Shown here: positions 17,344 through 50,914 of the stretch, piece by piece
How the letters are laid out: each line of letters begins with the position of its first letter
Position numbering within the stretch: the first letter of the stretch is position 1
Assembly (NCBI GenBank): GCA_030692045.1
Contig: JAUYCX010000045.1
Span: 94,086-158,085 of the forward strand
Direction: 5' to 3'
Origin: Candidatus Omnitrophota bacterium
GTDB lineage: Bacteria; Omnitrophota; Gorgyraeia; JAUYCX01
Length of the DNA: 64,000 nucleotides
The notes under the pieces: generated by a model
Told to the model about the DNA's origin: nothing
The model's database searches: none
Seen by the model: the letters and a program-made list of their open reading frames with translations, nothing else
Made by a program: the position numbers and the translations under genes

Positions 17344-17368
17344 TTTCGCTTGGTTCCACCTCCATTAA

Positions 17369-18457
17369 TCATATATTGTTAGTGATTTGATTCTTTACTC
17401 TTCGACTAAAGGTTTGTTTGAGTGTTACTAGCAGACCATCTGTCAAGCCTCGCAGAGACATAATTCTATTCCACTCAGGAACTCCAGGGCAGAAACAAGT
17501 TAGACACCTCAATCTTGCCATATTATCCCAAGCTTTTTGAAAACCATCTTTGAGTATATTCATCGGCTGAAAGTGATCCGTGTTCCAAAGAGCTGCGCAA
17601 GGATATAAGTCTCCGTTTGCATCTACATAAAACATTGTATTTCCGAAAGGACACTTATTTTTATAAAATTTTCTGTGTTCTATATCATCTTGGAAAATAA
17701 TTTTATTATAAGGTAAAGGGTAGTTAATCACATAATCCAGAGCGGCTTGAGAAAAAAGTACCCGCCGTCCTTGTTGACGAAGTTTCTTCAACTTAATAAA
17801 AACATTTTTAATCTCCCCATCGCTTAATGTAACCTCCTCTGCTCTTACAATATCTTCACAAAGAAATTCAGCGGTTATAGCGAAGGTAACATAAAGGTCA
17901 AACTTATCTGCTAAATTTAAAAGAAATTCTAAACTGTTCTGACTTTGTTTAGTCATAACAGCATTAATGCGCACAACTACGCCGTTTTCTCTTGCTATCT
18001 TAATTGCATCAAGGGCATACTTGAAACTTCCTTTGCCTCTATTGGCATCATTTGCAACTTCATCTCCATCAAGGCTTACCATAAGTGAATTAATCTTTTT
18101 TACCACATTGATCATTTTGGGAACCAATATTCCATTGGTAGTCATATCACAGATAATCTTTTTACTTTGAATATGCCCAATAATTTCTTCAATATCAGGA
18201 TGAAGTAAAGGCTCCCCTCCCATCAGGCAAATCATTCGACAACCCATAGTAAATATTTCATCAATAAGTTGTTTCCACTCTTGAGTACTTAATTCCTTTC
18301 TTTTTTTAGTTGTATCTACAAAACAATAGCGACAGTGCATATTGCAACGATCGGTAAGAAGCAAATAGGCGACTACCGGACTGCGTTGACCTAAAATTTT
18401 ACATTGCATTACCTTATTAAACAAACGCGCTCGCTTGACTAACAGATTACTTAACAT
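17369..18457 (-). CDS. Radical SAM/SPASM protein
   Basis: A 362-residue enzyme: N-terminal amphipathic basic helix (about 1-25); radical SAM motif TDRCNMHCRYCFVD (near 35); GGEPLLHPDI; TTNGILV; SLDGDEVANDANRGKGSF; and a C-terminal Cys-rich region, CPFGNTMFYVDANGDLYPC then CLTCFCPG, which would bind an auxiliary cluster. It is clearly paralogous to the protein at 20238 (same NDANRG-type motif and same DANxDLYPC). The basic N-terminal helix and the long hydrophobic/basic tail suggest membrane association. No small precursor peptide is next to it, so a non-peptide substrate is possible. Confidence 0.88.
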   Translation of the reverse strand: MLSNLLVKRARLFNKVMQCKILGQRSPVVAYLLLTDRCNMHCRYCFVDTTKKRKELSTQEWKQLIDEIFTMGCRMICLMGGEPLLHPDIEEIIGHIQSKKIICDMTTNGILVPKMINVVKKINSLMVSLDGDEVANDANRGKGSFKYALDAIKIARENGVVVRINAVMTKQSQNSLEFLLNLADKFDLYVTFAITAEFLCEDIVRAEEVTLSDGEIKNVFIKLKKLRQQGRRVLFSQAALDYVINYPLPYNKIIFQDDIEHRKFYKNKCPFGNTMFYVDANGDLYPCAALWNTDHFQPMNILKDGFQKAWDNMARLRCLTCFCPGVPEWNRIMSLRGLTDGLLVTLKQTFSRRVKNQITNNI

Positions 18458-38262: not shown

Positions 38263-40185
38263 CTATGTAGTATCCTTTATCTTGCTTGCTTCTTCGTTTT
38301 CCTTTTCCTCTGTGCGGTAATATTTATACTTGTAATGGTAATAGTAAGGATAATATCCTGTATCTAGATAGGTTTCAGGCCTAATGTGATTTAAAACCAC
38401 GCCCAAAACCTTTGCCCCTATGGTTTCTAATTGAATCTTTGCCCTTAACAGAGCACTCCTGGCAGTTCTACCCATTTCATAAACCAATACCACGCCATCC
38501 ATCTTGGGAGCCAAGATTGCTGAATCAGAAATAGAAAGCACGGGCGGAGAGTCAAATAAAACAACTTCGAATTTATCTTTTAGTTCATCAATTAAAGAAA
38601 GCATCTTTTTTGAGCCCAAAAGCTCTGCAGGGTTATGAGCAATGTGACCGCTGGTTATGATATGTAAATTATCTAATCCTGGATTTTTTACAGCATCATC
38701 AAAACCCAATTTACCTAACATTATATCTGTTAAGCCTTTTATGCAGTCTTCTAAATGAACTTCACCTGCCAGCAACTCATTTACACCTACATCTCTTTCA
38801 ATACCCAACAACTTATTTACACAAGGCCTTCTTAAATCCGTATCTACAACCAATGTCTTCATTCCCATTTGAGCTAAGGTTAAAGCTAATCCCATTAAGA
38901 CTGTTGACTTTCCCTCTCGAGGTCCCGTACTGGTAATAAGCAAAACCTTTTTCTGTTCGCTAAGTTTTAAATTTGTCCTTAAAATACGAAACGACTCTGC
39001 CATTTGCGAAAGCGGCTTTAGATGCACAATTAAACCTACCTTAAGGTCATCTTCCTCAGTCTGTGATTTCTGGGATTTATATTTCTTACCTAATCCGCGA
39101 GCCTCTTTTGCTTCTGATTTAACTGAAGGGATGACTGCTAAGACCGGCAACTTTAGAACGCTCTCCACATCTTCTATGGTGCCAATTGAGGTATCCAAAC
39201 TCTCAGAGATAAATGCAAAGATAAAACTCATCATTAAGCCCACCACACTTCCCACCATAAGAGCAAATTTTTTGTTTGGTCTAATAGGATATTTTGGTTC
39301 AATTGCGGGATTGACAATTGAGGCATCAGCGGTTTGTTGTGCTTCATTTATTCTGGCTTCTTCGAATTTCTCGCGCAGCATTGTATAAAGCTTCTCATTT
39401 ACACTTACATCTCTTTTTAAGCGGGCAAATTCAAACTCGGCTTTGGGGAGTTTTTTTAACTGCTCCTGAATATCCTGAATTTGTTCTCTTAATCTAATTA
39501 CCTGAGGATGTTTTTCTGTTGCCTTAGTTAAAATATCTGCTAACTCACCCTGTAAAGCAATTAATCTATTTTCTAAAGCCACGGCAATTCCTGAAACAGT
39601 TTCTTTTTCTTTAAACGACCTTAGGGTTTCTTCGCCCTTCTTAAGCCTTTCTGCAACCGTTGCCAATTGTTTTTGAATAAACTCACGCACCTGAAAAGCC
39701 TCTTTGTTTCTCTGTCTAAAATTCTCCTCCACATAAACCTCAGCTATTTTGTTGACAATATCTCTGGCTCTTTTTGGCTCACTAGAAGTAAGGGTTATTC
39801 TAATAATACTTGTTACCTGTTGGCGTTCTGTTCCAATATTTGCTTCTATCTCTCCCACTATTTCTTCAATCTTTTCCGTAGAAGAGTTTTTGTCAATTAA
39901 TTTAAGCCTTCTGGCAGCCTCTTCTATCACGGGTCTACTTCTAATAACCTTTTCCTCTGTCAATAAGAAATCTCCTCCATAACCCATAATCCTTTCGGTT
40001 AAAGCACCAATTACAGTCTTTCGCTGCTCAACTCTAACCATTGCTGAGGCTTCATAAATTGGGGTTTGTAAATTATTATAAACTGCTGTTGCGATAACCG
40101 AAGAGATGAATGTTAAAAGTATTATAATCCTTCTCTTCTTTAGGATGCGCCAATAATCGCGAATATTTAGTTCGTATTGTGCCAT
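38263..40185 (-). CDS. Wzc-like polysaccharide co-polymerase and tyrosine kinase
   Basis: A 640-residue inner-membrane protein that controls chain length and export. Domains: N-terminal Wzz segment with a membrane span (about 17-35), a periplasmic coiled-coil region with GNVR-type PKYPIRPNKKF and second span (about 285-330), then a BY-kinase with Walker A GPREGKST, Walker A' VVDTDLRRP and Walker B VLFDSPP. The C-terminus has a dense tyrosine cluster (ten Tyr in about 20 residues), the usual autophosphorylation tail. Starts 1 bp after the export protein stop. Confidence 0.93.
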   Translation of the reverse strand: MAQYELNIRDYWRILKKRRIIILLTFISSVIATAVYNNLQTPIYEASAMVRVEQRKTVIGALTERIMGYGGDFLLTEEKVIRSRPVIEEAARRLKLIDKNSSTEKIEEIVGEIEANIGTERQQVTSIIRITLTSSEPKRARDIVNKIAEVYVEENFRQRNKEAFQVREFIQKQLATVAERLKKGEETLRSFKEKETVSGIAVALENRLIALQGELADILTKATEKHPQVIRLREQIQDIQEQLKKLPKAEFEFARLKRDVSVNEKLYTMLREKFEEARINEAQQTADASIVNPAIEPKYPIRPNKKFALMVGSVVGLMMSFIFAFISESLDTSIGTIEDVESVLKLPVLAVIPSVKSEAKEARGLGKKYKSQKSQTEEDDLKVGLIVHLKPLSQMAESFRILRTNLKLSEQKKVLLITSTGPREGKSTVLMGLALTLAQMGMKTLVVDTDLRRPCVNKLLGIERDVGVNELLAGEVHLEDCIKGLTDIMLGKLGFDDAVKNPGLDNLHIITSGHIAHNPAELLGSKKMLSLIDELKDKFEVVLFDSPPVLSISDSAILAPKMDGVVLVYEMGRTARSALLRAKIQLETIGAKVLGVVLNHIRPETYLDTGYYPYYYHYKYKYYRTEEKENEEASKIKDTT

Positions 40186-40186
40186 A

Positions 40187-41287
40187 TTATCTCTTAGGCG
40201 AAGGTCTTGTGCGAATAGTCTTAAGAGCCGAGACTGCAGAAGCAGAACTGGTTAAAGGTTCCAAAAGCTTTGTCATAATGTAATTGGCATCGGAAATAAG
40301 GCTTTTAGGAACATAGATAATGTCTCTTGGCTCAATAGGAATATTCTGAGAAAAATCTCTGCCGGTTATAGCCTTACTTAAATTAACCTTGATTACTTGG
40401 GGATTATTTAAATCGCCTCTTAAAACAAATACATTTCTTAAAATTGCGTCTTTGCTATATCCGCCTGCCACACCCAGCGCCTCTACGATTCTTATATTTG
40501 AAGCTTCATATACACCCGGATCACCCACTTCTCCCAGAATAATTACTTTATTTCCACCAAAATCAGTTATTTGCACAAACACATCTAAAATTAAATCTGG
40601 ATTATTCAAAAGTTTGGAAATTCCATGAGATAAAGACAAACGTAATTCATCCGGGCTTAAACCCTCTGCTTGGATATCGCCTACGGGTGGAAGAGAAATC
40701 TTGCCATCTGAACGCACCTTTACATTGTCAAAGCTTAAATCAACAATTTTAATAAAGGGCAAAACCCCAACCTCAGCCTTTCCAAAGCCAAACTGTTTTA
40801 CCATTATTGAAACCTCTGGAGACTTGATAAATTCAGAAAGTTTTTTAGTCAATAAATCATCCAACGCGGTTAAAGACATTCCATCTACACGTATATCCCC
40901 CACCAATGGATAGGAAATTTTTCCATCTGGACGCACAATCACATCTTTTTGCAAGTCTGGCCACTGCCACACAGCAATTTCTAATACATCGCCTTTATTG
41001 ATAGCATATTCTTCTTGTTCAAGTTCTCCTTCCTTTTTCTTTGCGCCCAAATTCTGCCATACACTTATACTTAAGGTATCTTCTTTGCCAATGATATAAT
41101 TAAAGGATTTTTGTGGTGAAATTTTTGTAGTGGAAGGGCTTTTATTTATAACTTCCTTGGCCCTTTCCAAACTCTTTGAGATTGATTCTTCTCTTGGGCT
41201 TAAGGCAAAACAGGCGGGTTCAGTAGTGGTAAAAAAAAATAGAAAACCACCTAATAAGATATAACTAAGTTTATCTATCTTAATCAT
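40187..41287 (-). CDS. Wza-like polysaccharide export protein with doubled export domain
   Basis: Outer-membrane/periplasmic exporter of 366 residues. A signal peptide is visible (SYILLGGFLFFFTTTEPACF). The export domain (YAINKGDVLEIAVWQWPDL, VRPDGKISYPLVGDI, about 95-150) is followed by a second copy (VRSDGKISLPPVGDIQAEG, about 205-225) and by an SLBB-like region with ILGEVGDPGVYE. I preferred ATG 41287 to a TTG at 41323, because a promoter with TTGATT and TATATT lies at 41323-41295 and would overlap the longer start. First gene of the region A operon. Confidence 0.88.
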   Translation of the reverse strand: MIKIDKLSYILLGGFLFFFTTTEPACFALSPREESISKSLERAKEVINKSPSTTKISPQKSFNYIIGKEDTLSISVWQNLGAKKKEGELEQEEYAINKGDVLEIAVWQWPDLQKDVIVRPDGKISYPLVGDIRVDGMSLTALDDLLTKKLSEFIKSPEVSIMVKQFGFGKAEVGVLPFIKIVDLSFDNVKVRSDGKISLPPVGDIQAEGLSPDELRLSLSHGISKLLNNPDLILDVFVQITDFGGNKVIILGEVGDPGVYEASNIRIVEALGVAGGYSKDAILRNVFVLRGDLNNPQVIKVNLSKAITGRDFSQNIPIEPRDIIYVPKSLISDANYIMTKLLEPLTSSASAVSALKTIRTRPSPKR

Positions 41288-41294
41288 GTAATTT

Positions 41295-41323
41295 AATATA
41301 TCAAATTTTAAATTCAAAATCAA
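41295..41323 (-). promoter_or_regulatory. Sigma-70-type promoter of the polysaccharide operon, leaderless
   Basis: Reading the minus strand: TTGATT (41323-41318), 17-nt spacer, TATATT (41300-41295), then 7 nt and the ATG at 41287. Transcription should begin at or within one base of the ATG, so the mRNA would be leaderless; no Shine-Dalgarno fits in this space. Confidence 0.7.
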
Positions 41324-41408: not shown

Positions 41409-42299
41409 ATGCAACTTTCTATTATTATTGTAAATCATAATGCGCAAAAGCTGCTTGAAGATTGCTTGGATTCAATTTACAAAAATACACCCAAACTTGA
41501 TTTTGAAATAATTGTAATTGACAACAATTCCTGCGATAAAAGCCTGTTTGCCATAAAAACCAATTTTAAAGAGGTGAAACTTATTGAAAATAGAGCCAAT
41601 GTTGGTTTTGCTAAAGCAGTTAATCAAGGCATGGGACAAGCCAAGGGTCAATTCCTACTTTGTCTTAATAATGATACGATTGTTTTGCCATCCAGTTTGA
41701 ATAAACTATCACATTTTATGAATTCTCACTCCTCTGTAATTGCAGCAGGAGGTAAGGTATTAAATCCCAACGGTTCAATACAATTTTCCTGCAGGAGATT
41801 TCCGAATTATCAAACCTTTCTGTTTAATAGACATTCTCTCTTAACACGCATCTTTAAGAATAACAAATTCTCTAAAAATTATTTAATGTCTGATTGGCCT
41901 CACAATGAAGCCTGCGCTGTAGACTGGGCATCTGCTTGTTATTTAATTATGAGAAGAGAGGCAATTGAAAAAGTTGGATTGATGGATGAAAGATTTTTTA
42001 TGTATTGCGAGGATGTAGACTGGTGCTTGCGAGCAAAAAAATTAGGATTTAAGATTTATTATGTGCCTGATTGCCCCATAATTCATCTTGATAAAGGTTA
42101 TGGCAAGAATTTTAACAGAAAGATAATTGAACACCACAAAAGTATGTACTACTTTTATAAAAAAAATTTAAGAAAAACTCTCTTTATGGATTTACCGGTT
42201 TTAATCTTTATTAACATTCGAGCTGGATTTATATTGCTACTTAATTATCTGAAGTTGATTTTATGTAAGATTAAAGATTATCCTAAAGAGATGTTCTAA
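41409..42299 (+). CDS. Family 2 glycosyltransferase, rhamnosyltransferase-like
   Basis: Lone plus-strand gene between two minus-strand operons. The 296-residue GT-A protein has LSIIIVNHNAQKLLEDCLDS, VIDNNSCDKS, NVGFAKAVNQGM, LCLNNDTIVLP, WASACYLIMRREAIEKVG and FFMYCEDVDWCLRAKKLG: the pattern of rhamnosyl-/galactofuranosyl-type GT2 enzymes (WbbL-like). I chose ATG 41409, not 41367, because the GT2 fold begins directly there and the promoter TATAAT lies inside the longer frame. The last 39 bp overlap the 3' end of the convergent nucleotidyltransferase gene. Confidence 0.88.
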   Translation: MQLSIIIVNHNAQKLLEDCLDSIYKNTPKLDFEIIVIDNNSCDKSLFAIKTNFKEVKLIENRANVGFAKAVNQGMGQAKGQFLLCLNNDTIVLPSSLNKLSHFMNSHSSVIAAGGKVLNPNGSIQFSCRRFPNYQTFLFNRHSLLTRIFKNNKFSKNYLMSDWPHNEACAVDWASACYLIMRREAIEKVGLMDERFFMYCEDVDWCLRAKKLGFKIYYVPDCPIIHLDKGYGKNFNRKIIEHHKSMYYFYKKNLRKTLFMDLPVLIFINIRAGFILLLNYLKLILCKIKDYPKEMF

Positions 42300-43478
42300 A
42301 CGGTAAGAAAATTTTTTCCTACTTTTTCTTTGGCCTTTATCATAATGATATATAAGCCATTCTCGACTGGGAAAAAGCATTTTTATAACTACACGGATTG
42401 TATTAAAAAGTCCATCCATTAAAAATAACTGAGAGATAATTTTTTTAAAGGAGTGCTCAACGTCAGGTAAAGACAAAATTCTCTTCTTGGAAATTAAAAA
42501 ATCTACTAGAATGAGTATTCTTGTATTTGGTTTTAACGCCTCTAAAATATCCTCAGATATTATCTTGCCAAATAATTGTTGTGTAAGGACTAAACTATAA
42601 TAAACTATTCTTTTCATCTTATAAAGCCTTGCCTTAACAATCAAATATGGCCAATCTATATCTTTTTGATAGGTAAGAATCACCTCTCGAATATCACAAA
42701 ATCTAAATAAGCCAGCAAAAGAATGAACTATTGCATGATGCATACATAAATGCATTATTAAATGGTTAGGATTAAGTATTCTTAAATCTCCCTGAGAGCC
42801 TTTAATTATTTTTGATTTATTCCAAATTTCCTCATCTAAATCAATTCTAAAAACATCTTGAAAACGTTCATACTGAGATAAATTTGTATGGATATCTAAA
42901 AATACCCCTCCTTCTTTATAAAGATATACTTCTCCGCCGAATTTCTCTAAACTCTCTTGGTCTAAAAAGTCTGGTTTCTGGTAGCCAGCACCTTGTAAAA
43001 CTGCTCTAATTTTAGTTAGATTTTTTCTTTTTACCAACAAATCTACATCGCTCATTGGTCTTAAGCCGATATTTTTATAGACTGTCTCTAAAAGACTAGC
43101 GCCCTTTAGAACAATTGCCTCTATTCCTTCTTGATTTAATAACAGGACAACTTTATGAAGCTCTAATTGTATCAACCAGTTCCTCTCTAAAATTTTATAG
43201 TAAAATTGTTTCAGCCTATCTTTAGATTCTTTAGGGATAGTTGACCAGACCTCGTCCAACATTGATAGATGCAAATAAAGAAACTGAGCCACGCCTTGCC
43301 GTGCAGCTTTTTCAACCAAACTAAACCAGTCTAAATGAGAAGCAGCTAATGACTTTAACCTCTCTTTAATCTCATCATCTATCGTAGTCCTACTGCAATA
43401 AATTAAAAAATCCCTTTCTAAAAAACTTGTTTCTCTTTCTTTGCTTTTAGTAATAAATAATGTGGGATTAAACATCAA
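42261..43478 (-). CDS. Nucleotidyltransferase-fold protein of the HPr-kinase/PqqD system
   Basis: A 405-residue protein of the NTP_transf_5 type (uncharacterised nucleotidyltransferase). Core: IEAIVLKGASLLETVYKNIGLRPMSDVDLLVKR near 140, with the catalytic-type DVD; then YLYKEGGVFLDIH and LIMHLCMHHAIVHSFAGLFRFCDI. The same family travels with PqqD-like and HPr-kinase-like genes in lasso-peptide and EPS-linked cassettes. Its target, perhaps the modified peptide or a carrier, is unknown. Overlaps the ABC transporter stop by 4 bp. Last gene of the RiPP-like operon. Confidence 0.78.
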   Translation of the reverse strand: MMFNPTLFITKSKERETSFLERDFLIYCSRTTIDDEIKERLKSLAASHLDWFSLVEKAARQGVAQFLYLHLSMLDEVWSTIPKESKDRLKQFYYKILERNWLIQLELHKVVLLLNQEGIEAIVLKGASLLETVYKNIGLRPMSDVDLLVKRKNLTKIRAVLQGAGYQKPDFLDQESLEKFGGEVYLYKEGGVFLDIHTNLSQYERFQDVFRIDLDEEIWNKSKIIKGSQGDLRILNPNHLIMHLCMHHAIVHSFAGLFRFCDIREVILTYQKDIDWPYLIVKARLYKMKRIVYYSLVLTQQLFGKIISEDILEALKPNTRILILVDFLISKKRILSLPDVEHSFKKIISQLFLMDGLFNTIRVVIKMLFPSREWLIYHYDKGQRKSRKKFSYRLEHLFRIIFNLT

Positions 43479-45232
43479 AGTTTTATATCAATTCTTTCTT
43501 CCTCTATTTGGCTGGCAAATAATTCTCGATAGTTTAGGTTTTGTTTTACTAATTCTTCATGATAACCTATACTGATTTTATCTGCATTTTCTAAAAAATA
43601 GACTAAATCCATCTTTTTAACCGTAGAAAGGCGATGAGAAATAACAATTAAGGTTGTATTTTTAAATTCTCGTCTTAAGTTATCAATAATGCTGTCTTCG
43701 GTCTGAGAATCAACTGAAGACATACCTTCGTCGATGATTAATATCTTTGGGGTTTTTATAATTGCCCTGGCTAAGGCAATCCTCTGTTTCTGCCCTTCAG
43801 AGAGTCTTATACCTTCATTTCCTATTACAGTCTCAAATTTTTCTGGCAAATCTTTAATAAAATCATAAGCGCAAGAAATCTCTGCAGAGCGCAATATCTC
43901 CTTATCAGTTGCCTTAGGATAAGCATATCTTATATTGTTTCTTATAGTATCATTCCAGAGAATTGGCTTCTGTAAAACTACTCCTATCCGTTCACGTAGC
44001 GAGTTATTTTTTATTAAATTTATATCCTGTCCATCTATAAATATATTTCCTTCGGATAACTGATAAAGTTTTAATATAAGACTAACAATTGTGGTCTTAC
44101 CACAACCCGAATGCCCAACCAAACCAACTGCGAAGCCGCCATTTATTTTAAAACTTAATTCCTGGATAACTTTTTTATTAGGATAATAGCCAAAACTTAC
44201 ATCTTTAAATTCCATCTCTCCTAATAAAAACAAAAATTCTTTTGAATTTATGTTATCGCTTTCTTGCGGCCAAGATTCCAATATATCTACAAGTCTCTGA
44301 AGAGAAATATTTCCTAATGTTACACGTATAAACAAAGCAACCAAACCACCCTGTAGAGCGATCAATTGATTTAGATAAAGCATTATAGCGGCAAAACTAC
44401 CTAAAGTTATCTGGCCTTTTATAATATTATAACCACCGTAAATTGTTATTATGCCAATAATCAATCTATTAATCCAGCTATCCAGAATGGAGTTGAGCGT
44501 ATCTAATTTAACGCTAGTTATATTTAATCTAAGATTATTTATTAGATGTTTTGTGAAACGTCTAAGTTCCGTCTTTTCTTTTGCAAATGCCTTGACTAAC
44601 TGTATATTGGAAAAATTCTCCCTTACCACTTCAAACATATTCTGAGTGCTAATAATCAATTCTTCAGATTTCTTTCTTATCCTGCGGATAAGCAAAAAAG
44701 TCGGAAGATATAAAAATGGTACGGCCACAAAAAGAAAAATAGTTATTTTCCAATGCATAATTAAAATGATTGCCAAGATAAATAAAAATTTGGGAATAGT
44801 ATAACATAATTCAGGAATAATACTGGTTATAAAACTAGCCACATTTTGACTTTCAGCATTTAATTTATAGATATATTCGCCAATTGGTCTTTTTTGAAAA
44901 AAACTGTAAGGCAAATTTTCTAACTTTTGGAATATTGCCCTTTCTAAGCTAAATCTCACCTTTATATTTATATAATTTTTTAGATAATGCTCTAAACTAG
45001 TACATAGACTACTAATAATAAAAACTAACCCAGCTAAAACTAAAAGTTTGGTAAAAATATAAAAATCTTTTTTGGCATAGGCTTCATCTATGACTAATTT
45101 TGCCAAATATGGACCTGCCAATGGAAGAATGGCTGTTGTAAAATTTAGAAACAATACAATAATCTCTTTTCTCCAATAGGGCTTTAGATATTTAAGAAAA
45201 TTAATAAAATTTCTTAAGCTATTTTTGTTCAT
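43475..45232 (-). CDS. ABC exporter, membrane plus ATPase domains fused
   Basis: A 585-residue half-transporter with six membrane segments (1-310) and an ATPase domain (about 335-570): VGLVGHSGCGKTTIVSLIL (Walker A), RIGVVLQKPIL (Q-loop), RLSEGQKQRIALARAI (signature with LSEGQ) and KILIIDEGMSSVD (Walker B). It has no N-terminal C39 peptidase domain, so leader removal needs another enzyme; the S26-type peptidase at 49269 is a candidate. It would export the mature peptide. The ATG overlaps the kinase stop by 4 bp. Confidence 0.87.
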   Translation of the reverse strand: MNKNSLRNFINFLKYLKPYWRKEIIVLFLNFTTAILPLAGPYLAKLVIDEAYAKKDFYIFTKLLVLAGLVFIISSLCTSLEHYLKNYINIKVRFSLERAIFQKLENLPYSFFQKRPIGEYIYKLNAESQNVASFITSIIPELCYTIPKFLFILAIILIMHWKITIFLFVAVPFLYLPTFLLIRRIRKKSEELIISTQNMFEVVRENFSNIQLVKAFAKEKTELRRFTKHLINNLRLNITSVKLDTLNSILDSWINRLIIGIITIYGGYNIIKGQITLGSFAAIMLYLNQLIALQGGLVALFIRVTLGNISLQRLVDILESWPQESDNINSKEFLFLLGEMEFKDVSFGYYPNKKVIQELSFKINGGFAVGLVGHSGCGKTTIVSLILKLYQLSEGNIFIDGQDINLIKNNSLRERIGVVLQKPILWNDTIRNNIRYAYPKATDKEILRSAEISCAYDFIKDLPEKFETVIGNEGIRLSEGQKQRIALARAIIKTPKILIIDEGMSSVDSQTEDSIIDNLRREFKNTTLIVISHRLSTVKKMDLVYFLENADKISIGYHEELVKQNLNYRELFASQIEEERIDIKL

Positions 45233-46152
45233 TTCATTATCCTATCTAATATCGGCCAGAAATTATCATCTTTCCTAAAATACATCTCATAGGCAGGAAT
45301 GGTTTTAAAAAAATCTGCCAGCCTAAAAAATATTCTTTTTGCCAGCGGTAGCTCTGTATATAAAAAGAAATGAATATACTGTGAAAGAACTCTTACTAAA
45401 GCTTCTTGCGGGCTTATGGGTTCAAAATGAAGAGGCCTTGACTTATTTAAGAAAAATACTGCCTTTATGGGAACCGCAAGGGAGGCCTTTGGTCTAATAA
45501 ATGTATTCTGCCTCCAAGGGGTAGCAAAAGCGAGAAACTTATTCTCAATTTTTCTAATTGCAATTATATCGTCACCTAAAACAGAATATCGTTTAGACAA
45601 CTTGGTTAGTGTAGTTTTGCCACCTCCTGCTTTAGCAAAAAATAGATAAGCCACATTTTCTTTAGCCACACAAGCGCAATGTAGCAATACACCTTCCATA
45701 TAAGCCAAGATTTGTGAGTAGATAAAAGTAATTAAGCGAGAATAAGCTATTCCTGGCTCATTGATTACATTTTCTTTGAAATAGAAATGCCTGAGCTTTC
45801 TTTCTTTAGGATTAATTTCTACTGGCTCATTAAAATAAAAGGAGATTCTCGGTAGGAGCTTGGGATATCTACTATAAAGATAAAATAGGTTCTTTTGTTT
45901 TTCCTGCCAGTCATTTAAAGGTAGATTAGAATAATGAAATCTTTCTTTTATAAAACTAATTTTATGTTTAAGGCAGGCGGCGTAAGAAAAGAAATCGGTT
46001 TTCTCTATACCTAAAGATTCAAGGTGCCATATTTGTTTGTGAGGCTTCTTAGAATTATTTGTAAATCCTCTAAAAGATGTAGGTATGCACTCATTGTCTT
46101 TAAATTTTATACATAATGGTATACCGGCTATAGTAAATATAACTTTCTTCAT
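45229..46152 (-). CDS. HPr kinase-related protein
   Basis: A 307-residue protein resembling the C-terminal domain of HPr kinase/phosphorylase. P-loop: FFAKAGGGKTTLTKL (near 168). The following GDDIIAI matches the Asp-Asp pair of the HprK/PEP-carboxykinase fold. It lacks the N-terminal domain of classical HprK, and no HPr is nearby. Relatives occur in lasso-peptide clusters (paeninodin PadeK modifies the precursor) and in the HPr-rel-A system with PqqD and nucleotidyltransferase. A peptide kinase role is inference. Confidence 0.78.
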   Translation of the reverse strand: MKKVIFTIAGIPLCIKFKDNECIPTSFRGFTNNSKKPHKQIWHLESLGIEKTDFFSYAACLKHKISFIKERFHYSNLPLNDWQEKQKNLFYLYSRYPKLLPRISFYFNEPVEINPKERKLRHFYFKENVINEPGIAYSRLITFIYSQILAYMEGVLLHCACVAKENVAYLFFAKAGGGKTTLTKLSKRYSVLGDDIIAIRKIENKFLAFATPWRQNTFIRPKASLAVPIKAVFFLNKSRPLHFEPISPQEALVRVLSQYIHFFLYTELPLAKRIFFRLADFFKTIPAYEMYFRKDDNFWPILDRIMK

Positions 46153-46197
46153 TACAGATACACATTAACCACCATTAGTCATCTTCTAATCTCTTTT

Positions 46198-46464
46198 TTA
46201 ACTGCATACAATCAACATTCTTTTCTTTAGCTGATGTATGAGCCTGTTAATATCTCTTCTGGTTTTGGATAAACCTATTTGGTACTTATGGCTAAAGAAT
46301 CTGGATATCTGATTTAATGACCTGGGTTTTTTACAGAAATTCCACACCAAACGAGCAGTGTCATTACAAACATAAGAACGATAAGTTCTACAATTAAATA
46401 TCACGATGCTATTTGGAAGATGAGCAACACAAATATCTTTTGATTGCCTAACTTTCATCTTCAT
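46198..46464 (-). CDS. PqqD-like protein 2 (RiPP recognition element)
   Basis: An 88-residue protein with a diverged PqqD fold: IVIFNCRTYRSYVCNDTARLVWNFC in the place of the usual beta strands and helix, then a winged-helix-like part SLNQISRFF to DINRLIHQLKKRMLI. It probably binds a precursor leader. The sequence is Cys- and Arg-rich and differs strongly from PqqD-like protein 1, so each may serve a different modifying enzyme. Start overlaps the end of the first PqqD gene by 17 bp; ATG 46458 is an equal choice. Confidence 0.7.
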   Translation of the reverse strand: MKMKVRQSKDICVAHLPNSIVIFNCRTYRSYVCNDTARLVWNFCKKPRSLNQISRFFSHKYQIGLSKTRRDINRLIHQLKKRMLIVCS

Positions 46465-46729
46465 CCAGAAACTTAAGTTTTTTGAGTTCTGCTATGAACT
46501 TCTCTAAATCTTCTTTTATTTTATTCTCATCCGAGGTATCAAATGCATCCATAATTTTTTGCACTAAGATTTCTAAAGAAGCGCTACCATCTAAATTACT
46601 CCAGATAAATTTTCCGGTTTCATTAAGCACTTTTACGGCGCCTGTATCAGGGTCAAATAAAAGGGCTTCATCGCCTTCCTCGCGAAATACAATCCTTGTG
46701 CTTGCCTTGGGATTATAATTTGATGACAT
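46448..46729 (-). CDS. PqqD-like protein 1 (RiPP recognition element)
   Basis: A 93-residue PqqD-family protein: RIVFREEGDEALLFDPDTGAV, then KVLNETGKFIWSNLDGSASL and the helical KIMDAFDTS, ending LKKLKFLDEDES. PqqD domains bind RiPP leaders and deliver them to the radical SAM partner. The start lies inside the 3' end of the radical SAM gene (17-bp overlap), so translation is coupled to it. This pairing is what is expected of a leader-binding subunit for that enzyme. Confidence 0.85.
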   Translation of the reverse strand: MSSNYNPKASTRIVFREEGDEALLFDPDTGAVKVLNETGKFIWSNLDGSASLEILVQKIMDAFDTSDENKIKEDLEKFIAELKKLKFLDEDES

Positions 46730-47783
46730 TGTCTTTTAACTGTGTTTGCGTTTCATTCAGCCAGCAATAGAGACTGCGGTCCTTAACTCCCCCGGGATAA
46801 TAATAAGGATAACAGCGGTGTCCAATAAAACAGATATATTGATACTGGCAGCTTTTACACTCAGGTAAATCATCTAAATTTATTTCCATCGGTCTTCTAA
46901 ACTCATTCATCTGTTGAGAATTCTGCCAGATATCTACTAAAGTTTGCTGTTTTAGATTGCCGCATTTCACATCCCAAATTAACTCACAAGGTGTAACCCA
47001 GCCATCAGGTCTGATATTGCATTTATTGCCAGCTGCGCCGCAGGGTGAAACCACAATCTTATCTCTTGTTGGTTGATAGTGTTTCATCTGGTTTAATTTT
47101 TCTTTTTGACAAAGATAGGTACTGGTTTTATAAATAAAATCGGGGAATTCTTCATTAGCCCTACAGACCTCATTGATAGCTTCTAATTCCTCATCTGGTG
47201 AAAGATAAACCTGTTTTATAAAACAAGCGGCATTACCAGCAAAAAAGACATGATTAAAACGAATGGTATTAGCCTTTAACTCTTTAGCTAATAAAACCAT
47301 CCCTTTTACATCTTTATAGTTTATTTTAGTTAATGTCGCAGAGAGTAGAACTGAGACGCCTTCAGCTAAAAGCGACTCTATGCCTTTAATATTTTTCTTA
47401 AATGTGCCTTCCCCTCTTGTTTTATCCATTACTTCTTGTTTTGAACCATCAAAGCTAACTGCAATGTTTTTTATTTTATGCTGTTTAAGCCACTTAGCTA
47501 TTGAACGGTCAATTAATGTGCCGTTGGTATTTAAGGAAAGTTGTAGGGGGTATTTGTTTAAATGCTCAACAACAAGAAAAAAATCCGGATGCACTAATGG
47601 CTCACCGCCAAAGATATTTACTTTAAATACTTTGGCTTCTGCCAACTGGTCAATAACCCTAAGGAGCTCAGCCGTACTAAGGTCTGGCTCACAATTAGGT
47701 AAATTCCTGTTTAAACAATGTTTACAGCTGAGATTGCAACTGCTGGTTATATTTAGGCAAACCTCAAATGGCGCAGAATACAT
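46713..47783 (-). CDS. Radical SAM/SPASM peptide-modifying enzyme 2
   Basis: A 356-residue enzyme with TSSCNLSCKHCLNRNL (cluster motif near 13-23), FGGEPLVHPDFF, LNTNGTLI, SFDGSKQEVMDKTRGEGTF and a C-terminal SPASM domain: SPCGAAGNKCNIRPDGWVTPC then CKSCQYQYICFIGHRCYPY and YCWLNE. That is a full two-auxiliary-cluster set, as in anSME- or PqqE-type peptide-modifying enzymes. It follows the precursor gene by 38 bp and overlaps the PqqD gene; a role in modifying the Cys/Gly-rich peptide is the natural reading. Confidence 0.88.
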   Translation of the reverse strand: MYSAPFEVCLNITSSCNLSCKHCLNRNLPNCEPDLSTAELLRVIDQLAEAKVFKVNIFGGEPLVHPDFFLVVEHLNKYPLQLSLNTNGTLIDRSIAKWLKQHKIKNIAVSFDGSKQEVMDKTRGEGTFKKNIKGIESLLAEGVSVLLSATLTKINYKDVKGMVLLAKELKANTIRFNHVFFAGNAACFIKQVYLSPDEELEAINEVCRANEEFPDFIYKTSTYLCQKEKLNQMKHYQPTRDKIVVSPCGAAGNKCNIRPDGWVTPCELIWDVKCGNLKQQTLVDIWQNSQQMNEFRRPMEINLDDLPECKSCQYQYICFIGHRCYPYYYPGGVKDRSLYCWLNETQTQLKDNVIKL

Positions 47784-47821
47784 ATTTTCTTTAACCTATC
47801 ATCTTTACCTTTATCTTGCCT

Positions 47822-48142
47822 TTATCCTGTTTCAAGAGAACTACCATTAAAACAACCTACGCCAGGAGTACCACCATTGCAACAGTAAACAGTTGCTGAG
47901 GGACCAAAATTGCAATACGCTTTACCAGCGACGTCATGGCCAATGGCACAACTTGAACCAACCAAACCGCCAGCCTCACAAAGACTACCTCCTGGACCCG
48001 AACCAGCAACGCAGCAAGGCGTTGTTCCGCTGGGTCCAGCTTGACACAAGGTTGTAGTTGCGCCTACCACATTTAAATTAGGACCGCCTATATCAAAGAC
48101 TAAAGGTGGTGAATATGCTTTGCGTTTAATATCTTTGGACAT
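47822..48142 (-). CDS. Cys/Gly-rich RiPP precursor peptide (106 aa, three 22-residue repeats)
   Basis: Probable substrate of the two radical SAM enzymes on either side. I chose ATG 48142 because AAAGGAG lies 7 nt upstream; a longer frame to 48199 starts inside the previous radical SAM gene. Residues 1-32 are the leader, with KAYSPPLVFDIG, matching YxxPxVxxxG of leaders recognised by PqqD-like domains. Residues 33-106 are core: nine Cys and eighteen Gly in the last 76 residues. Cys33, 55 and 77 are 22 apart, as are Cys43, 65 and 87; units 1 and 3 have Cys-Cys (43-44, 87-88), and each unit begins CxxG. A shorter fourth unit starts at Cys97. No relative is recognised. Confidence 0.85.
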   Translation of the reverse strand: MSKDIKRKAYSPPLVFDIGGPNLNVVGATTTLCQAGPSGTTPCCVAGSGPGGSLCEAGGLVGSSCAIGHDVAGKAYCNFGPSATVYCCNGGTPGVGCFNGSSLETG

Positions 48143-48161
48143 AGCTTTCTCCTTTCTATTA

Positions 48162-49259
48162 TTATATAAGTCTTGAAATCGGAAATAATCCTTGCTCATA
48201 CGCTTGTTGACAAAATGAGAATGGCGCTACAAAAGAGCCTTTAGCATAAAATGCCTCAGCTCGGCATTTACCCAAACAATAGTATCTTAATATACACTTG
48301 CCGCAGACCCCTTTTAAATTATAAGGCACATTCTTTCTGATATCTTCTAATATAGGATGATTGCACCATATATCTTTAATGCTATCTTGACCAACTTTTC
48401 CTAACACCAAGGTATCTAAGCTATCTCCAATACCACAAATAGAGAGCCTGCCATCAGCTAATATTCCCAATATGTTTAAGATACTGCAGTTATATAAATC
48501 TCTTAACCGACCATTCTTTAAAGGTTGAAAGGCGGGTGGAATATCAAAATGCACTGCAAAAGCAGGCTCTTTCTGCAGTTGCTGCATAAGTTGTTTATAA
48601 CAATCTATGACTTCTTTTACACTTAAGACTTCTTGGTCTTTTAGCATCTTATCAGCGCGGGCAATGCAACTTATAATATTTATCTTTACTGAATTAACGC
48701 CTAACGAGCGAGATAGCTCAATTACTGATTTTAGATAATCTTTGTTTTGTCTCCAAAGAGAAATTATTAGCTGAACATTTAAGTTATGTTCTTTTAAGAA
48801 TTTTATACCCTCAATAGCCTCAGCAAACGAGCCCTTTATGCCCCTTAATAACTCATGTATTCGAGCATTAGGCCCGTCAATTGAAACTGCTACTTGACTA
48901 ACCTTGACCTGTTTTAAAGCCCGGGCTTCTTTCTGTTTAATTAAAGTAGCATTGGTTTCAAAAGTAACATTTAGGTTTCTATCTTTAATGTAATCTAACA
49001 ATTCAAATATATCAGCTCTTAAGAAAGGCTCACCGCCAGTTATCTTAACTGAATTCATGCCTAATTTTTGACATTCATCCAAGGCCAAAAAAAGAGATTT
49101 TACATCTAACTCATTATCTTTGGGGGTTCTATCTGTAGAAAATTCAGGGTCTATCCAGCAGTGGCGACATCTAAGATTGCAATACTTGGAAAAATATAGA
49201 TATACACAGTTTAAGCTGAATTTGGTTTTTGTTTCTTCTTGGGTTAATTGCGCCTGCAT
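48162..49259 (-). CDS. Radical SAM/SPASM peptide-modifying enzyme 1
   Basis: A 365-residue enzyme with SKYCNLRCRHCWID (near 28-42), KITGGEPFLRADIF, TFETNATLI, SIDGPNARIHELLRGIKGSF and SPASM cysteines in YNCSILNILGILADG, RLSICGIG, GVCGKCILRYYCLGKCRAEAF and FSFCQQ. It belongs to the peptide-modifying SPASM group and precedes the precursor gene by 19 bp. It differs clearly from enzyme 2, so the two probably perform different steps, such as two bond types or two cysteine sets. Spacing to the peptidase gene upstream is 9 bp. Confidence 0.88.
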   Translation of the reverse strand: MQAQLTQEETKTKFSLNCVYLYFSKYCNLRCRHCWIDPEFSTDRTPKDNELDVKSLFLALDECQKLGMNSVKITGGEPFLRADIFELLDYIKDRNLNVTFETNATLIKQKEARALKQVKVSQVAVSIDGPNARIHELLRGIKGSFAEAIEGIKFLKEHNLNVQLIISLWRQNKDYLKSVIELSRSLGVNSVKINIISCIARADKMLKDQEVLSVKEVIDCYKQLMQQLQKEPAFAVHFDIPPAFQPLKNGRLRDLYNCSILNILGILADGRLSICGIGDSLDTLVLGKVGQDSIKDIWCNHPILEDIRKNVPYNLKGVCGKCILRYYCLGKCRAEAFYAKGSFVAPFSFCQQAYEQGLFPISRLI

Positions 49260-49268
49260 AATTTATTA

Positions 49269-49787
49269 TTACTTAAACAAGTTTCCTAAAGCAAAATAAA
49301 AACCTCTCACAGAATATTTTAAATATGTGATTATAAAATTAGGGATATATCTTTTAAATTTTTGAAAAAATAAAAATGCCCTGCCCAGAAATACATACAA
49401 TAAGTCATAGCCCTTATTTTTATTTAAAATATTTTTTGGGGGAGAATCCTTATAAAAGGCAGCTTCAACCCTGCCAATTAAATTTGCTTGGCTTATCTGA
49501 TTGAGGCCACCAAGAGGCTGGTTATCTCCTTTAGTTACAAACAAAATCTTTCCATTATTACGAATTAAATCTATTACCCGATGAGCCACTATTGTAGTGT
49601 CTTGTTTATAGACTATAATATCAGCAATCTTTATTGCTTGCGCTGGTATATTCGATATGGTCAGCATCATCGAATCTTTTAAGGTGGGATACATACTTTT
49701 ACCGTTGAAAAGTAGATTAACTTTATCTCTCGTTGCAATTGCCTGTCTAATTAATTCAATATTATGCATAAAAAGTATGTCTGTCAA
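49269..49787 (-). CDS. S26-type (SipW-like) peptidase
   Basis: A 172-residue S24/S26-fold protease. The nucleophile region is FNGKSMYPTLKDS (Ser near 31), followed by DIIVYKQDTTIVAHRVIDLI. The AHR motif places a His where most bacterial signal peptidases have the catalytic Lys, as in SipW/ER-type S26B enzymes, and FVTKGDNQ closes the domain. No N-terminal membrane anchor is seen; a hydrophobic C-terminal stretch (YLKYSVRGFYFALGNLF) may anchor it. Position and motif suggest it trims the peptide leader or a linked surface protein. An alternative start is Met7 (49769). Confidence 0.8.
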   Translation of the reverse strand: MTDILFMHNIELIRQAIATRDKVNLLFNGKSMYPTLKDSMMLTISNIPAQAIKIADIIVYKQDTTIVAHRVIDLIRNNGKILFVTKGDNQPLGGLNQISQANLIGRVEAAFYKDSPPKNILNKNKGYDLLYVFLGRAFLFFQKFKRYIPNFIITYLKYSVRGFYFALGNLFK

Positions 49788-49795
49788 ACTTTTAT

Positions 49796-50914
49796 CTATT
49801 TATTTATATCTAACTCATCAACATTAACCGGCTTTTTGACATATATTGTGGGGTTTGTGGATAAATCAATGATTCTTTCTTCGGCAAGTTTTCTTTCTTG
49901 GGGGTCTAATACAATCCTGACTATTGGCTTAAGCGGAGAGTCTTTATTTACTTTAGTAACTATCCCCATTTCGTTTGTGCTTAACTGTACCCAGCTGCCT
50001 AAGGGAAAAATGCCAATTTTCTCAATTAATACCTTTAAAAATTTGAAATCAAAATGTTCCTTATTCTTTAAAATATCTCTTATTGCCTCATAGGGATGTA
50101 ATCTTTCACGATAAGAGCGCGGATGAGTCAATGCTTCATAGTTATCTACAGTTGCCACAATCTTAGCGTATTCATCAATATCATTGCCCTTTAATCCCTT
50201 TGGATAGCCTCTTCCATTTGTCCTTTCGTGATGTTCTTGTGCAACATAAATAGCAGCTTGAGAAATATCCTTGACCATCTCTAACATATCCATTCCATAG
50301 ATTGGATGTTGTTTGATTTTATTGTATTCTTCATCTGTTAATTTACCAACCTTGCTGGAAACATCTGTTACCTTGACCATGCCTATATCATGTAAAAAGG
50401 AAGCCACCCCTAACTCACTTAGTTGCTCCTTTGTATAGACTAAACCTATGCCTAACATAATTGAAAGTATGGAAACATTGACGCTATGCGCATAAAGATA
50501 ATTCTCAGGCGTAGAATTGTTGGTTAGGTTTATCAAATCCACATTGCCCAGACTTAACTGGTTAACTAATTTATCTATGTGCTCCTTGATTTCTTTTACT
50601 TCAATGGGTTCGTTCTTTAGGCCTTGCTCTAATATTGCCTTTATTAATGCCAAAGAATCCTGATATAATTTCTCTGTCTCCTCAAGGGAAGAGACTTTTA
50701 TTTTGCTTAGCATTATATCCGAGGCATCTTTTATTGAAATTGGCTGAGTTGCTTCTGTAATGGGGAAAGCTTCTTTTTGAATCTCCTTTATAGGAATTTT
50801 TGAAGTGGTTGGCTTTAAAGATTGGTCTTCTTTTTCAACTTCTGGAGGAGATTTTTCTTCTTTGGGGGTTTCCTGCGGTGTTTCTTTCTTGAAAAAATCT
50901 GACATTTTAACCAT
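49796..50914 (-). CDS. HD-GYP domain protein (cyclic-di-GMP phosphodiesterase)
   Basis: A 372-residue protein. Residues 1-75 are low-complexity, acidic and Pro-rich; the HD-GYP domain (about 125-310) has HSVNVSILSIMLG, SFLHDIGMVK, HPIYGMDMLEMV, EHHERTNGRGYPKGL and DNYEALTHPRSYR. All the expected His/Asp ligands and the GYP motif are present, so hydrolysis of c-di-GMP is likely. It has no receiver or membrane domain. It is the first gene of the RiPP-like operon, 8 bp ahead of the peptidase. Methionine 4 (50905) is another possible start. Confidence 0.88.
   Translation of the reverse strand: MVKMSDFFKKETPQETPKEEKSPPEVEKEDQSLKPTTSKIPIKEIQKEAFPITEATQPISIKDASDIMLSKIKVSSLEETEKLYQDSLALIKAILEQGLKNEPIEVKEIKEHIDKLVNQLSLGNVDLINLTNNSTPENYLYAHSVNVSILSIMLGIGLVYTKEQLSELGVASFLHDIGMVKVTDVSSKVGKLTDEEYNKIKQHPIYGMDMLEMVKDISQAAIYVAQEHHERTNGRGYPKGLKGNDIDEYAKIVATVDNYEALTHPRSYRERLHPYEAIRDILKNKEHFDFKFLKVLIEKIGIFPLGSWVQLSTNEMGIVTKVNKDSPLKPIVRIVLDPQERKLAEERIIDLSTNPTIYVKKPVNVDELDINK

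What the first reader, a model, noticed from the sequence alone, without database searches (positions are those of the whole stretch)
42261..50914. Candidate new RiPP pathway with two radical SAM/SPASM enzymes, two PqqD-like proteins, kinase, nucleotidyltransferase, peptidase and exporter
Ten minus-strand genes with overlaps or short spacers: HD-GYP, SipW-type peptidase, rSAM 1, Cys/Gly-rich precursor, rSAM 2, PqqD 1, PqqD 2, HPr-kinase-like, ABC exporter, nucleotidyltransferase. The precursor lies between two different SPASM enzymes. The kinase/PqqD/nucleotidyltransferase trio is known from lasso-peptide and EPS-linked (HPr-rel-A) cassettes, but here the lasso cyclase and its protease are missing and radical SAM enzymes take their place. 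I know of no described class with this set.
Basis: partly seen in the sequence, partly recalled or inferred. Interest (0 to 1): 0.93.

Follow-up and report, generated by a model that had tools for sequence, protein, structure and literature searches.

The report
Repeat-peptide cluster with two radical enzymes
This ten-gene cluster encodes a small Cys-x-x-Gly repeat peptide beside two radical SAM enzymes, and the enzymes would likely tie each repeat into a small sulfur ring before a signal-peptidase-like enzyme and a transporter are predicted to trim and export it; relatives with the same kind of repeat peptide occur in many bacterial and some archaeal groups.

Summary
The operon is real: ten minus-strand genes at 42261-50914, gaps -17 to +45 bp. 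The RiPP reading is supported, but not the claim that no described class has this set. NCBIfam holds a 'SynChlorMet cassette' (ScmA precursor, ScmC, D, E, F). The window is a divergent relative: its four Scm-like proteins lie below the curated cut-offs and ScmA does not match its precursor. In 57 of 80 related loci a short ORF has an aromatic-xx-P leader and a core of CxxG repeats, mostly 10-11 residues apart. With ORFs chosen by leader alone, 90% of 393 core cysteines still have Gly at +3. The remaining genes match the kit of the 2026 'linear polyphosphorylated peptides' (S26 leader peptidase, RRE, HprK-like kinase, NTP transferase, MsbA-like exporter; PMC13381572), here with two radical SAM/SPASM enzymes added. 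Streptosactin's Cys31-Gly34 thioether is a chemical precedent for CxxG. Best model: repeated four-residue Cys-Gly rings, RRE-guided, then S26 leader removal and export. Ring chemistry, kinase target and function are inferred, not shown. Polysaccharide-chain (Wzc-like) genes lie nearby in 15 of 50 loci against 0.67 expected.

The parts
49796..50914 (-). HD-GYP protein (HD and GYP letters present in the sequence), predicted c-di-GMP phosphodiesterase
   Evidence: Pfam HD_5 95.7 bits. Relatives in 12 of 77 loci, several -3 to 64 bp from kinase, PqqD or ScmF genes. The other five own-genome hits score at most 82.2 bits.
49269..49787 (-). S26/SipW-type peptidase without an evident N-terminal membrane segment, predicted leader peptidase; the true start is probably the ATG at 49769
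   Evidence: TIGR02228 over cut-off. G29, S31, M32, H69, R70 and G87 invariant in the 33 sequences aligned out of 44; L054, not aligned, has Cys in place of this Ser. N-terminal Kyte-Doolittle maximum 0.77 in the window. AlphaFold2 pLDDT 90.9; SEC11 and SpsB matched by fold, TM by query about 0.4-0.5, and by profile.
48162..49259 (-). Radical SAM/SPASM enzyme 1, ScmF-like
   Evidence: TIGR04251 344.5 bits, cut-off 400. C27, C31, C34 and C258, C275, C319, C322, C328, C332, C350 invariant in a 32-row alignment.
47822..48142 (-). Precursor peptide, 106 aa: leader with YSPPLV, core with 8 CxxG tetrads in 9 Cys
   Evidence: 40% identical to the L011 precursor.
46713..47783 (-). Radical SAM/SPASM enzyme 2, a lineage outside canonical ScmE
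   Evidence: TIGR04250 166.5 bits, cut-off 400. Quick tree: outside the 56-row ScmE clade (SH-aLRT 99), which holds NaphS2 ScmE.
46448..46729 (-). PqqD-like RRE 1, ScmD-like
   Evidence: PF05402 54.9 bits; TIGR04248 51.4, cut-off 100. Only PDB hit at E <= 0.1 is TbiB1, E 0.022, a lasso RRE as I recall.
46198..46464 (-). PqqD-like RRE 2, nearest to lasso-type PqqD models
   Evidence: PF05402 34.1 bits; lasso_PqqD 28 bits, cut-offs 70 and 80. 22% identical to RRE 1 over 65 columns.
45229..46152 (-). HPr-kinase/PEPCK-fold kinase, ScmC-like
   Evidence: TIGR04249 35.8 bits, cut-off 125. H158, G178, K179 and P212 invariant, D194 and D195 in at least 90%, in 40 aligned sequences. AlphaFold2 and Foldseek: 113 PDB matches at E <= 1e-3.
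43475..45232 (-). ABC exporter, MsbA-like, without a C39 peptidase domain
   Evidence: ABC_membrane plus ABC_tran; TIGR02203 MsbA 327.5 bits, below cut-off 602.
42261..43478 (-). NTP_transf_5 nucleotidyltransferase
   Evidence: PF14907 169.1 bits, cut-off 31.2.

Best explanation
The cluster encodes a Cys-x-x-Gly repeat precursor with two radical SAM/SPASM enzymes, and these enzymes likely close each CxxG unit into a four-residue Cys-to-Gly-alpha-carbon thioether ring. Shown: the gene set, the repeat core, the YxxP leader, the conserved catalytic-type residues of the S26 protein and of the kinase, and recurrence in related loci. Inferred steps follow. PqqD-like RREs bind the YSPPLV leader. The ScmF-like and ScmE-like enzymes, perhaps as a pair, act repeatedly on the core (about -2 Da per ring). 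The HprK-like kinase and the nucleotidyltransferase add phosphate and possibly sugar to a hydroxyl of the core. The S26 Ser/His peptidase cuts the leader at a small-x-small site just before the core. The MsbA-like ABC protein exports the product. HD-GYP and nearby polysaccharide genes suggest use at the cell surface under c-di-GMP control.
For: 57 of 80 ScmF loci hold a leader plus CxxG ORF. In 70 precursors 411 of 433 core Cys are in CxxG, spacing mostly 10 (167) or 11 (85); chosen by leader alone, 90% of 393 core Cys have Gly at +3, the next offset 28%. Of 77 loci, SCME is in 67, PqqD 62, kinase 56, precursor 55, S26 40, NTP 36, ABC 27, HD-GYP 12; of 31 loci with 6 kb on both sides 30, 29, 27, 25, 18, 17, 16, 7. 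One ORF (L027:7489-7980) carries a PqqD domain (PF05402) followed by a YEKPRL leader and three CxxG. S26: Ser/His invariant in 33 aligned of 44, little N-terminal hydrophobicity, signal-peptidase fold. In loci with S26, [AVST]x[AG] ends within 5 residues of the first core Cys in 27 of 34 precursors against 12.7 shuffled (0 of 1000 reach it), A-x-G in 15 against 2.8. Precedents: LppS S26 leader peptidase, LppB RRE and LppK kinase (PMC13381572, sections 6, 7, 11, 12 read); streptosactin Cys31-Gly34 and Cys25-Ser28 alpha-thioethers made by a SPASM enzyme (PMC8172795 passages; 4-residue macrocycles, PMC13361665 passages); TrnC and TrnD acting as a pair (PMC12093266 passages). The StsB-family sactipeptide maturase model scores 112 bits on rSAM 2 and 100 on rSAM 1 (cut-off 625).
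Against: No product is known. Other SPASM models (mycofactocin, WgkB, heme enzymes) score as high as or higher than StsB on one or both enzymes, so the enzymes do not by themselves point to sactionine. CxxG could be a turn or metal-binding motif. S26, NTP and ABC genes are missing from about half of the 31 loci with long flanks. The small-x-small site is also enriched, less strongly, in loci without S26 (19 of 31 against 10.5, 2 of 1000), and the clearest A-x-A sites lie there (10 of 31 against 2.8). One S26 relative (L054) has Cys where the others have the catalytic Ser. Only 3 of 70 precursors end in Ser, so a paeninodin-type C-terminal kinase target does not fit; no conserved unique Ser was shown. 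The window precursor has one Cys (C43) outside CxxG.
Confidence: 0.55

Rival explanations
1. The two radical SAM enzymes make a different repeated modification of the CxxGxxA unit, such as a Cys bond to the beta or gamma carbon of the +4 Ser/Thr or the +6 Ala, or a C-C bond or epimerisation; Gly only makes the turn.
For: Position +6 is Ala 47% or Pro 20%, +4 Ser 32% or Thr 12%. The window enzymes also score well against PapB (ranthipeptide), WgkB and mycofactocin models.
Against: Positions +4 and +6 are far less constant than Gly +3, and in the window +6 is Ala in 1 of 8 units. CxxG has a direct thioether precedent.
Confidence: 0.27
2. The CxxG peptide binds metal or Fe-S clusters, or is a structural secreted repeat protein, and the radical SAM enzymes act on few residues only.
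For: Regular Cys spacing of mostly 10-11 residues over up to 12 units; neighbourhood of polysaccharide genes.
Against: RRE, leader motif, two SPASM enzymes and, in about half, a leader-type peptidase travel together, which is RiPP logic; the precursor can be as short as two CxxG units.
Confidence: 0.12
3. The locus is simply a SynChlorMet cassette in the NCBIfam sense, with nothing beyond sequence divergence (this does not exclude the ring chemistry above).
For: Same gene set; TIGR04252 ScmA hits 16 of 35 precursors at E <= 0.1, NaphS2 at 69.1 bits. ScmF is the best model for rSAM 1 by far.
Against: All five curated models are missed at their cut-offs. rSAM 2 lies outside the ScmE clade. S26, NTP, ABC and HD-GYP parts are not among the Scm models that the scans returned.
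Confidence: 0.3

Closest known systems
SynChlorMet cassette (NCBIfam TIGR04248-TIGR04252: ScmD, C, E, F, A)
   Same: Homologous precursor type, ScmC-like kinase, ScmD-like PqqD, two radical SAM/SPASM enzymes; the NaphS2 locus L065, whose ScmA, ScmC and ScmD pass the cut-offs, also has S26, NTP and ABC genes nearby.
   Different: The window's Scm-like proteins fall below the curated cut-offs, ScmA does not match, rSAM 2 is from a separate clade, and there are two PqqD proteins and an HD-GYP gene in the operon.
Linear polyphosphorylated peptides, LPP (PMC13381572, 2026)
   Same: S26/SipW-like leader peptidase with Ser/His and an N-terminal helix, discrete RRE, HprK-like kinase, NTP transferase, MsbA-like exporter, YxxP leader, polysaccharide-locus setting.
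   Different: 'Radical SAM' occurs 0 times in the paper's main text; LPP has another leader consensus (FETxxS) and is described from Bacillota; here two SPASM enzymes and a CxxG core are added.
Streptosactin and other sactipeptides
   Same: SPASM radical SAM enzyme and Cys-x-x-Gly or Cys-x-x-Ser units; unnested four-residue rings are the precedent for the proposed chemistry.
   Different: One enzyme and two rings in streptosactin; here two enzymes, discrete RREs and 2-12 repeats; no thioether has been shown.
Paeninodin/pseudomycoidin lasso peptides
   Same: [Y/W]xxP leader, PqqD-like B1, HprK-like kinase, nucleotidyltransferase.
   Different: No macrolactam synthetase or B2 protease among the ten genes; precursors rarely end in Ser (3 of 70).

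Membership tests
SynChlorMet cassette | ScmF above curated cut-off (400 bits) | tested here: not met
   344.5 bits
SynChlorMet cassette | ScmE above curated cut-off (400 bits) | tested here: not met
   166.5 bits; outside the ScmE clade
SynChlorMet cassette | ScmD above 100 bits and ScmC above 125 bits | tested here: not met
   51.4 and 35.8 bits
SynChlorMet cassette | ScmA precursor model TIGR04252 above 35 bits | tested here: not met
   No match to the window precursor at E <= 0.1 or in the own genome at E <= 1. Of 7 relatives scanned singly, L065 (69.1) and L073 (39.1) pass, L057 (28.6) does not, 4 show no match at E <= 1e-4
SynChlorMet cassette | Co-located homologues of precursor, PqqD, kinase and two SPASM enzymes | tested here: met
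LPP | S26 leader peptidase with catalytic Ser, His, Asp | tested here: met
   S31 and H69 invariant, D88 in at least 90% of 33; cleavage itself untested. That D88 is the counterpart of LppS D93 is an assumption
LPP | Discrete RRE, HprK-like kinase, NTP transferase, MsbA-like exporter | tested here: met
LPP | Leader YxxPxVLxHQxIxFETxxS | tested here: not met
   Only the YxxP part and the hydrophobic residue after it are shared
LPP | Linear product, no further core-modifying enzyme | tested here: not met
   Two radical SAM/SPASM enzymes flank the precursor
Sactipeptide | Cys-S to alpha-carbon thioether | not testable with these tools
   Needs MS/MS or NMR
Sactipeptide | SPASM radical SAM enzyme with Cys-containing core | tested here: met
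Lasso peptide | Macrolactam synthetase and B2 protease in the cluster | tested here: not met
   None among the ten genes

The most novel reading that the evidence does not exclude
A cross-phylum RiPP class of poly-ring repeat peptides: paired radical SAM/SPASM enzymes turn 2-12 CxxG units into a string of four-residue Cys-Gly thioether rings, on the same chain that an LPP-type kinase and nucleotidyltransferase phosphorylate or glycosylate, so that one peptide unites sactipeptide and LPP chemistry and serves as a c-di-GMP-linked companion of exopolysaccharide.
Probability: 0.35. Interest if true: 0.85.

Novelty: new variant of a known kind. Interest (0 to 1): 0.68.

Why it matters
It joins three things that had stood apart: an NCBIfam cassette for which my searches found no paper (0 papers of the open library hold 'SynChlorMet'), the newly described LPP toolkit with its S26 leader peptidase, and the CxxG thioether known from streptosactin. 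If right, it predicts a large family of repeat peptides in bacteria and archaea with a simple mass-spectrometric signature of -2 Da per CxxG, a substrate in which repeat number can be varied, and a testable link between a modified peptide and exopolysaccharide.

Tried and rejected
Protein-database search with the window precursor found nothing (7 candidates, none at E <= 1e-3); the homologues appeared only by reading short ORFs next to ScmF relatives. An iterated HMM of the precursor drifted (87 hits) and was dropped for motif counts with shuffles. First-pass HMMs for PqqD and S26 also drifted onto long ORFs and were rebuilt with length limits. In one search I had set a wrong precursor start, which gave a one-letter query; one search put it right.

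A paeninodin-like kinase target at a C-terminal Ser was rejected: 3 of 70 precursors end in Ser. Cleavage at A-x-A by the cassette's own S26 was rejected as a general rule, because A-x-A sits mostly in loci without S26. Lasso peptide membership was rejected for lack of cyclase and B2. Paper searches for ScmE/ScmF, radical SAM with RiPP/HPr kinase/PqqD, CxxG with radical SAM, HprK-related kinase with PqqD, Omnitrophota RiPPs, and sactipeptide with HprK/signal peptidase gave no description of this system in the rows listed; all but one search list only the top of longer results. RRE-Finder, the 2025 RRE paper, the Tvg paper, the lasso B1 paper and the Cariaco Basin paper were looked at by passages only.

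Counts and dropped rows: the search for related loci confirmed 294 relatives and kept the best 80. 3 of 80 loci (L022, L026, L035) had no ScmF ORF over my threshold and are outside the 77. The 57 of 80 carry no shuffle filter; with one (p < 0.05) precursors are in 55 of the 77 loci. The 70 precursors are the window plus ORFs with leader and shuffle p < 0.05 (two, L046 and L090, added by hand; at least one, L053:6293, looks spurious); one search leaves out five of them, among them the L027 PqqD fusion. The 79 leader-only ORFs include chance ORFs without CxxG. A2 holds 35 precursors, A3 39 kinases beside the window (of 62 over threshold), A4 32 S26 proteins beside the window (of 43), chosen by hand; L054, with Cys for Ser, is not in A4. 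The polysaccharide test used 50 of 59 loci of 10 kb or more; none of the nine left out is among the 16 loci with a Wza or Wzc hit. One search used a profile at E <= 1e-5 but the genome counts a single sequence at E <= 1e-10; at that same threshold 15 of 50 loci hold a Wzc hit. Related loci are not independent, so the P value (4e-19, for 16) is too small.
Full report
What is there. The window lies in contig 91 of a 2.19 Mb, 119-contig assembly. Ten minus-strand genes run from an HD-GYP gene (start 50914) to a nucleotidyltransferase (end 42261), with gaps of 8, 9, 19, 38, -17, -17, 45, -4 and -4 bp. Family scans give: HD_5; S26 signal peptidase over its cut-off; radical SAM/SPASM 1; precursor without a match; radical SAM/SPASM 2; PqqD; PqqD; a kinase-like protein; ABC exporter; NTP_transf_5. 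The precursor start with a good ribosome-binding site is 48142, giving 106 residues with 9 cysteines; 8 of the 9 begin a CxxG tetrad (two overlap), and 0 of 20000 shuffles reach 8.

What it is related to. The best NCBIfam models for both radical SAM enzymes, the first PqqD and the kinase are those of the SynChlorMet cassette: ScmF 344.5 bits (cut-off 400), ScmE 166.5 (400), ScmD 51.4 (100), ScmC 35.8 (125). The precursor model of that cassette, ScmA, does not match the window. It matches 16 of 35 aligned precursors at E <= 0.1; of 7 scanned singly two pass the cut-off, NaphS2 L065 (69.1 bits, cut-off 35) and L073 (39.1), one falls below and four show no match at E <= 1e-4. A quick tree of 87 rows puts the window's second radical SAM enzyme in a group of 11 (SH-aLRT 92) outside the canonical 56-row ScmE clade (99), which contains NaphS2 ScmE. 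Thus the window is a divergent relative of a catalogued cassette, not a curated member.

The precursor family. A scan with a 32-row ScmF alignment confirmed 294 relatives and kept 80 loci. By the record titles these are Thermodesulfobacteriota (21), Omnitrophota (14), Myxococcota (10), Chloroflexota, Bacteroidota, Methanobacteriota and Pseudomonadota (4 each) and others. A phylum sample gave 16 of 384 genomes with ScmF at E <= 1e-70. Of 7070 short unlabelled ORFs in the 80 loci, 79 have three or more CxxG; 68 of these have an aromatic-xx-P leader motif upstream, in 57 of 80 loci, and 62 of 68 beat shuffles at p < 0.01; of the 11 without leader, 3 do. In 70 precursors, 411 of 433 core cysteines are in CxxG; spacing is 10 (167), 11 (85), 9 (28), 12 (21); position +6 is Ala or Pro in 67%, +4 Ser, Gly or Thr in 65%. 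Because that set was picked for CxxG, I repeated the count on ORFs picked by leader alone: 79 ORFs in 59 loci, 393 core cysteines, Gly at +3 in 90%, any other offset at most 28%. That set contains a few chance ORFs without repeats. One ORF, L027:7489-7980, joins a PqqD domain (PF05402 59.6 bits) to a YEKPRL leader and three CxxG.

The rest of the kit. Among 77 loci with ScmF, SCME is found in 67, PqqD 62, kinase 56, precursor 55, S26 40, NTP 36, ABC 27, HD-GYP 12; among 31 loci with 6 kb on both sides, 30, 29, 27, 25, 18, 17, 16, 7. So the radical SAM pair, RRE, kinase and precursor form the core, and S26, NTP and ABC are present in about half. In 43 of 44 S26 proteins a G-x-S-M lies early (median Ser at residue 23, range 4-68 of the ORF as called); of the 23 with at least 19 residues before it, the highest 19-residue Kyte-Doolittle mean is 1.73 (L075, probably called with too early a start), the next 0.97, the window's 0.77. 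L054 has Cys in place of this Ser. Ser31 and His69 are invariant in the 33 aligned. The AlphaFold2 model has pLDDT 90.9 and an N-terminal helix 2-20; the best folds are human SEC11 and S. aureus SpsB (4 matches at E <= 1e-3, TM by query about 0.4-0.5), and the profile finds SEC11C at 1e-17. The kinase model matches PEPCK and HPr kinase (113 PDB matches at E <= 1e-3, TM-scores by query 0.27-0.48 in the 50 rows shown), with invariant H158, G178 and K179 and near-invariant D194 and D195.

Link to published systems. PMC13381572 (sections 6, 7, 11, 12 read) describes linear polyphosphorylated peptides of Bacillota: SipW-like peptidase LppS (S29, H68, D93), RRE LppB, kinase LppK that phosphorylates Ser3 of the core, NTP transferase (no activity seen in the heterologous host), MsbA-like exporter, YxxP leader, often in capsule loci. 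'Radical SAM' occurs 0 times in its main text. The window has the same kit plus two SPASM enzymes and a CxxG core. For the chemistry, streptosactin carries alpha-thioethers Cys31-Gly34 and Cys25-Ser28 (PMC8172795 passages; one passage prints Cys15) in four-residue macrocycles (PMC13361665 passages). Thuricin CD shows two radical SAM enzymes acting as a complex (PMC12093266 passages). Pseudomycoidin is described with a kinase plus nucleotidyltransferase adding phosphate and hexose (PMC8498205 passages).

Mechanism. I propose RRE-guided, repeated closure of CxxG units by the two radical SAM enzymes, tailoring by kinase and nucleotidyltransferase, leader removal by S26 at a small-x-small site next to the first Cys, and ABC export. 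The site is enriched within 5 residues of the first core Cys: 27 of 34 precursors in S26 loci against 12.7 in shuffles (0 of 1000 reach it), and A-x-G in 15 of 34 against 2.8. In the window the candidate is V-V-G before ATTTLC. Against it, loci without S26 show the same enrichment more weakly (19 of 31 against 10.5, 2 of 1000), and A-x-A is commonest there (10 of 31 against 2.8; in S26 loci 4 of 34 against 2.3). Ring chemistry, kinase target and order of steps are not shown by anything here.

Setting. Just beyond a convergent glycosyltransferase (Glycos_transf_2) the window holds a Poly_export protein (Wza-like, 40187-41323) and a Wzz/GNVR/ATPase protein (Wzc-like, 38263-40185). Relatives of one or both lie in 16 of 59 loci of 10 kb or more. 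For 50 of these loci, genome-wide Wzc counts predict 0.67 such loci against 15 observed at the same E-value threshold. The loci include close relatives, so the excess is large but no exact probability should be read from it. HD-GYP proteins sit -3 to 64 bp from kinase, ScmF or PqqD genes in several loci.

Novelty. The cassette type is named in NCBIfam, yet no paper of the searched open library holds its name, and six further searches gave no description in the rows they listed; most of these lists were capped and subscription papers were not searched. New here are the generality of the CxxG core, the match to the LPP kit, the separate lineage of the window's second enzyme and the HD-GYP and polysaccharide link. 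I rate it a new variant of a known kind.

Noticed in passing
window 16222-18457: A radical SAM/SPASM protein (17369-18457, best model StsB sactipeptide maturase at 104 bits, far below its cut-off of 625) is followed by two TIGR04076 family proteins (16822-17343 and 16222-16821, both over the cut-off); possibly another radical SAM system.
   Followed up: partly
window 11196-31989: Many radical SAM genes are interspersed with glycosyltransferases in the polysaccharide region; the ScmF model rings at 23 places in the genome.
   Followed up: no
L027:7489-7980: One ORF fuses a PqqD domain (RRE) to a YxxP leader and a three-CxxG core, so that recognition domain and substrate may be one protein.
   Followed up: partly
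L017:14996-15790: The Syntrophaceae cassette lies next to an XrtA/PEP-CTERM-type ATPase (245 bits, cut-off 324.5), hinting at exosortase-linked polysaccharide loci.
   Followed up: no
L011:12888-14024: The nearest relative has an extra 378-aa protein between its two PqqD genes, weakly like the radical SAM proteins HxsC and HpnH; the window lacks it.
   Followed up: partly
L042, L046 and L072, upstream of ScmF: Bacteroidota loci carry several tiny precursors with two or three CxxG units each.
   Followed up: partly
L017, L018, L020, L023, L028, L031, L036, L044, L048, L055, L077, L079, L085, L086: Precursors of these loci have A-x-A (such as AHAQ, AYAQ) before the core but no S26 gene in the stretch held; which protease removes their leader is unexplained.
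   Followed up: partly
L054:7865-8302: An S26-type protein with Cys where the relatives have the catalytic Ser.
   Followed up: no
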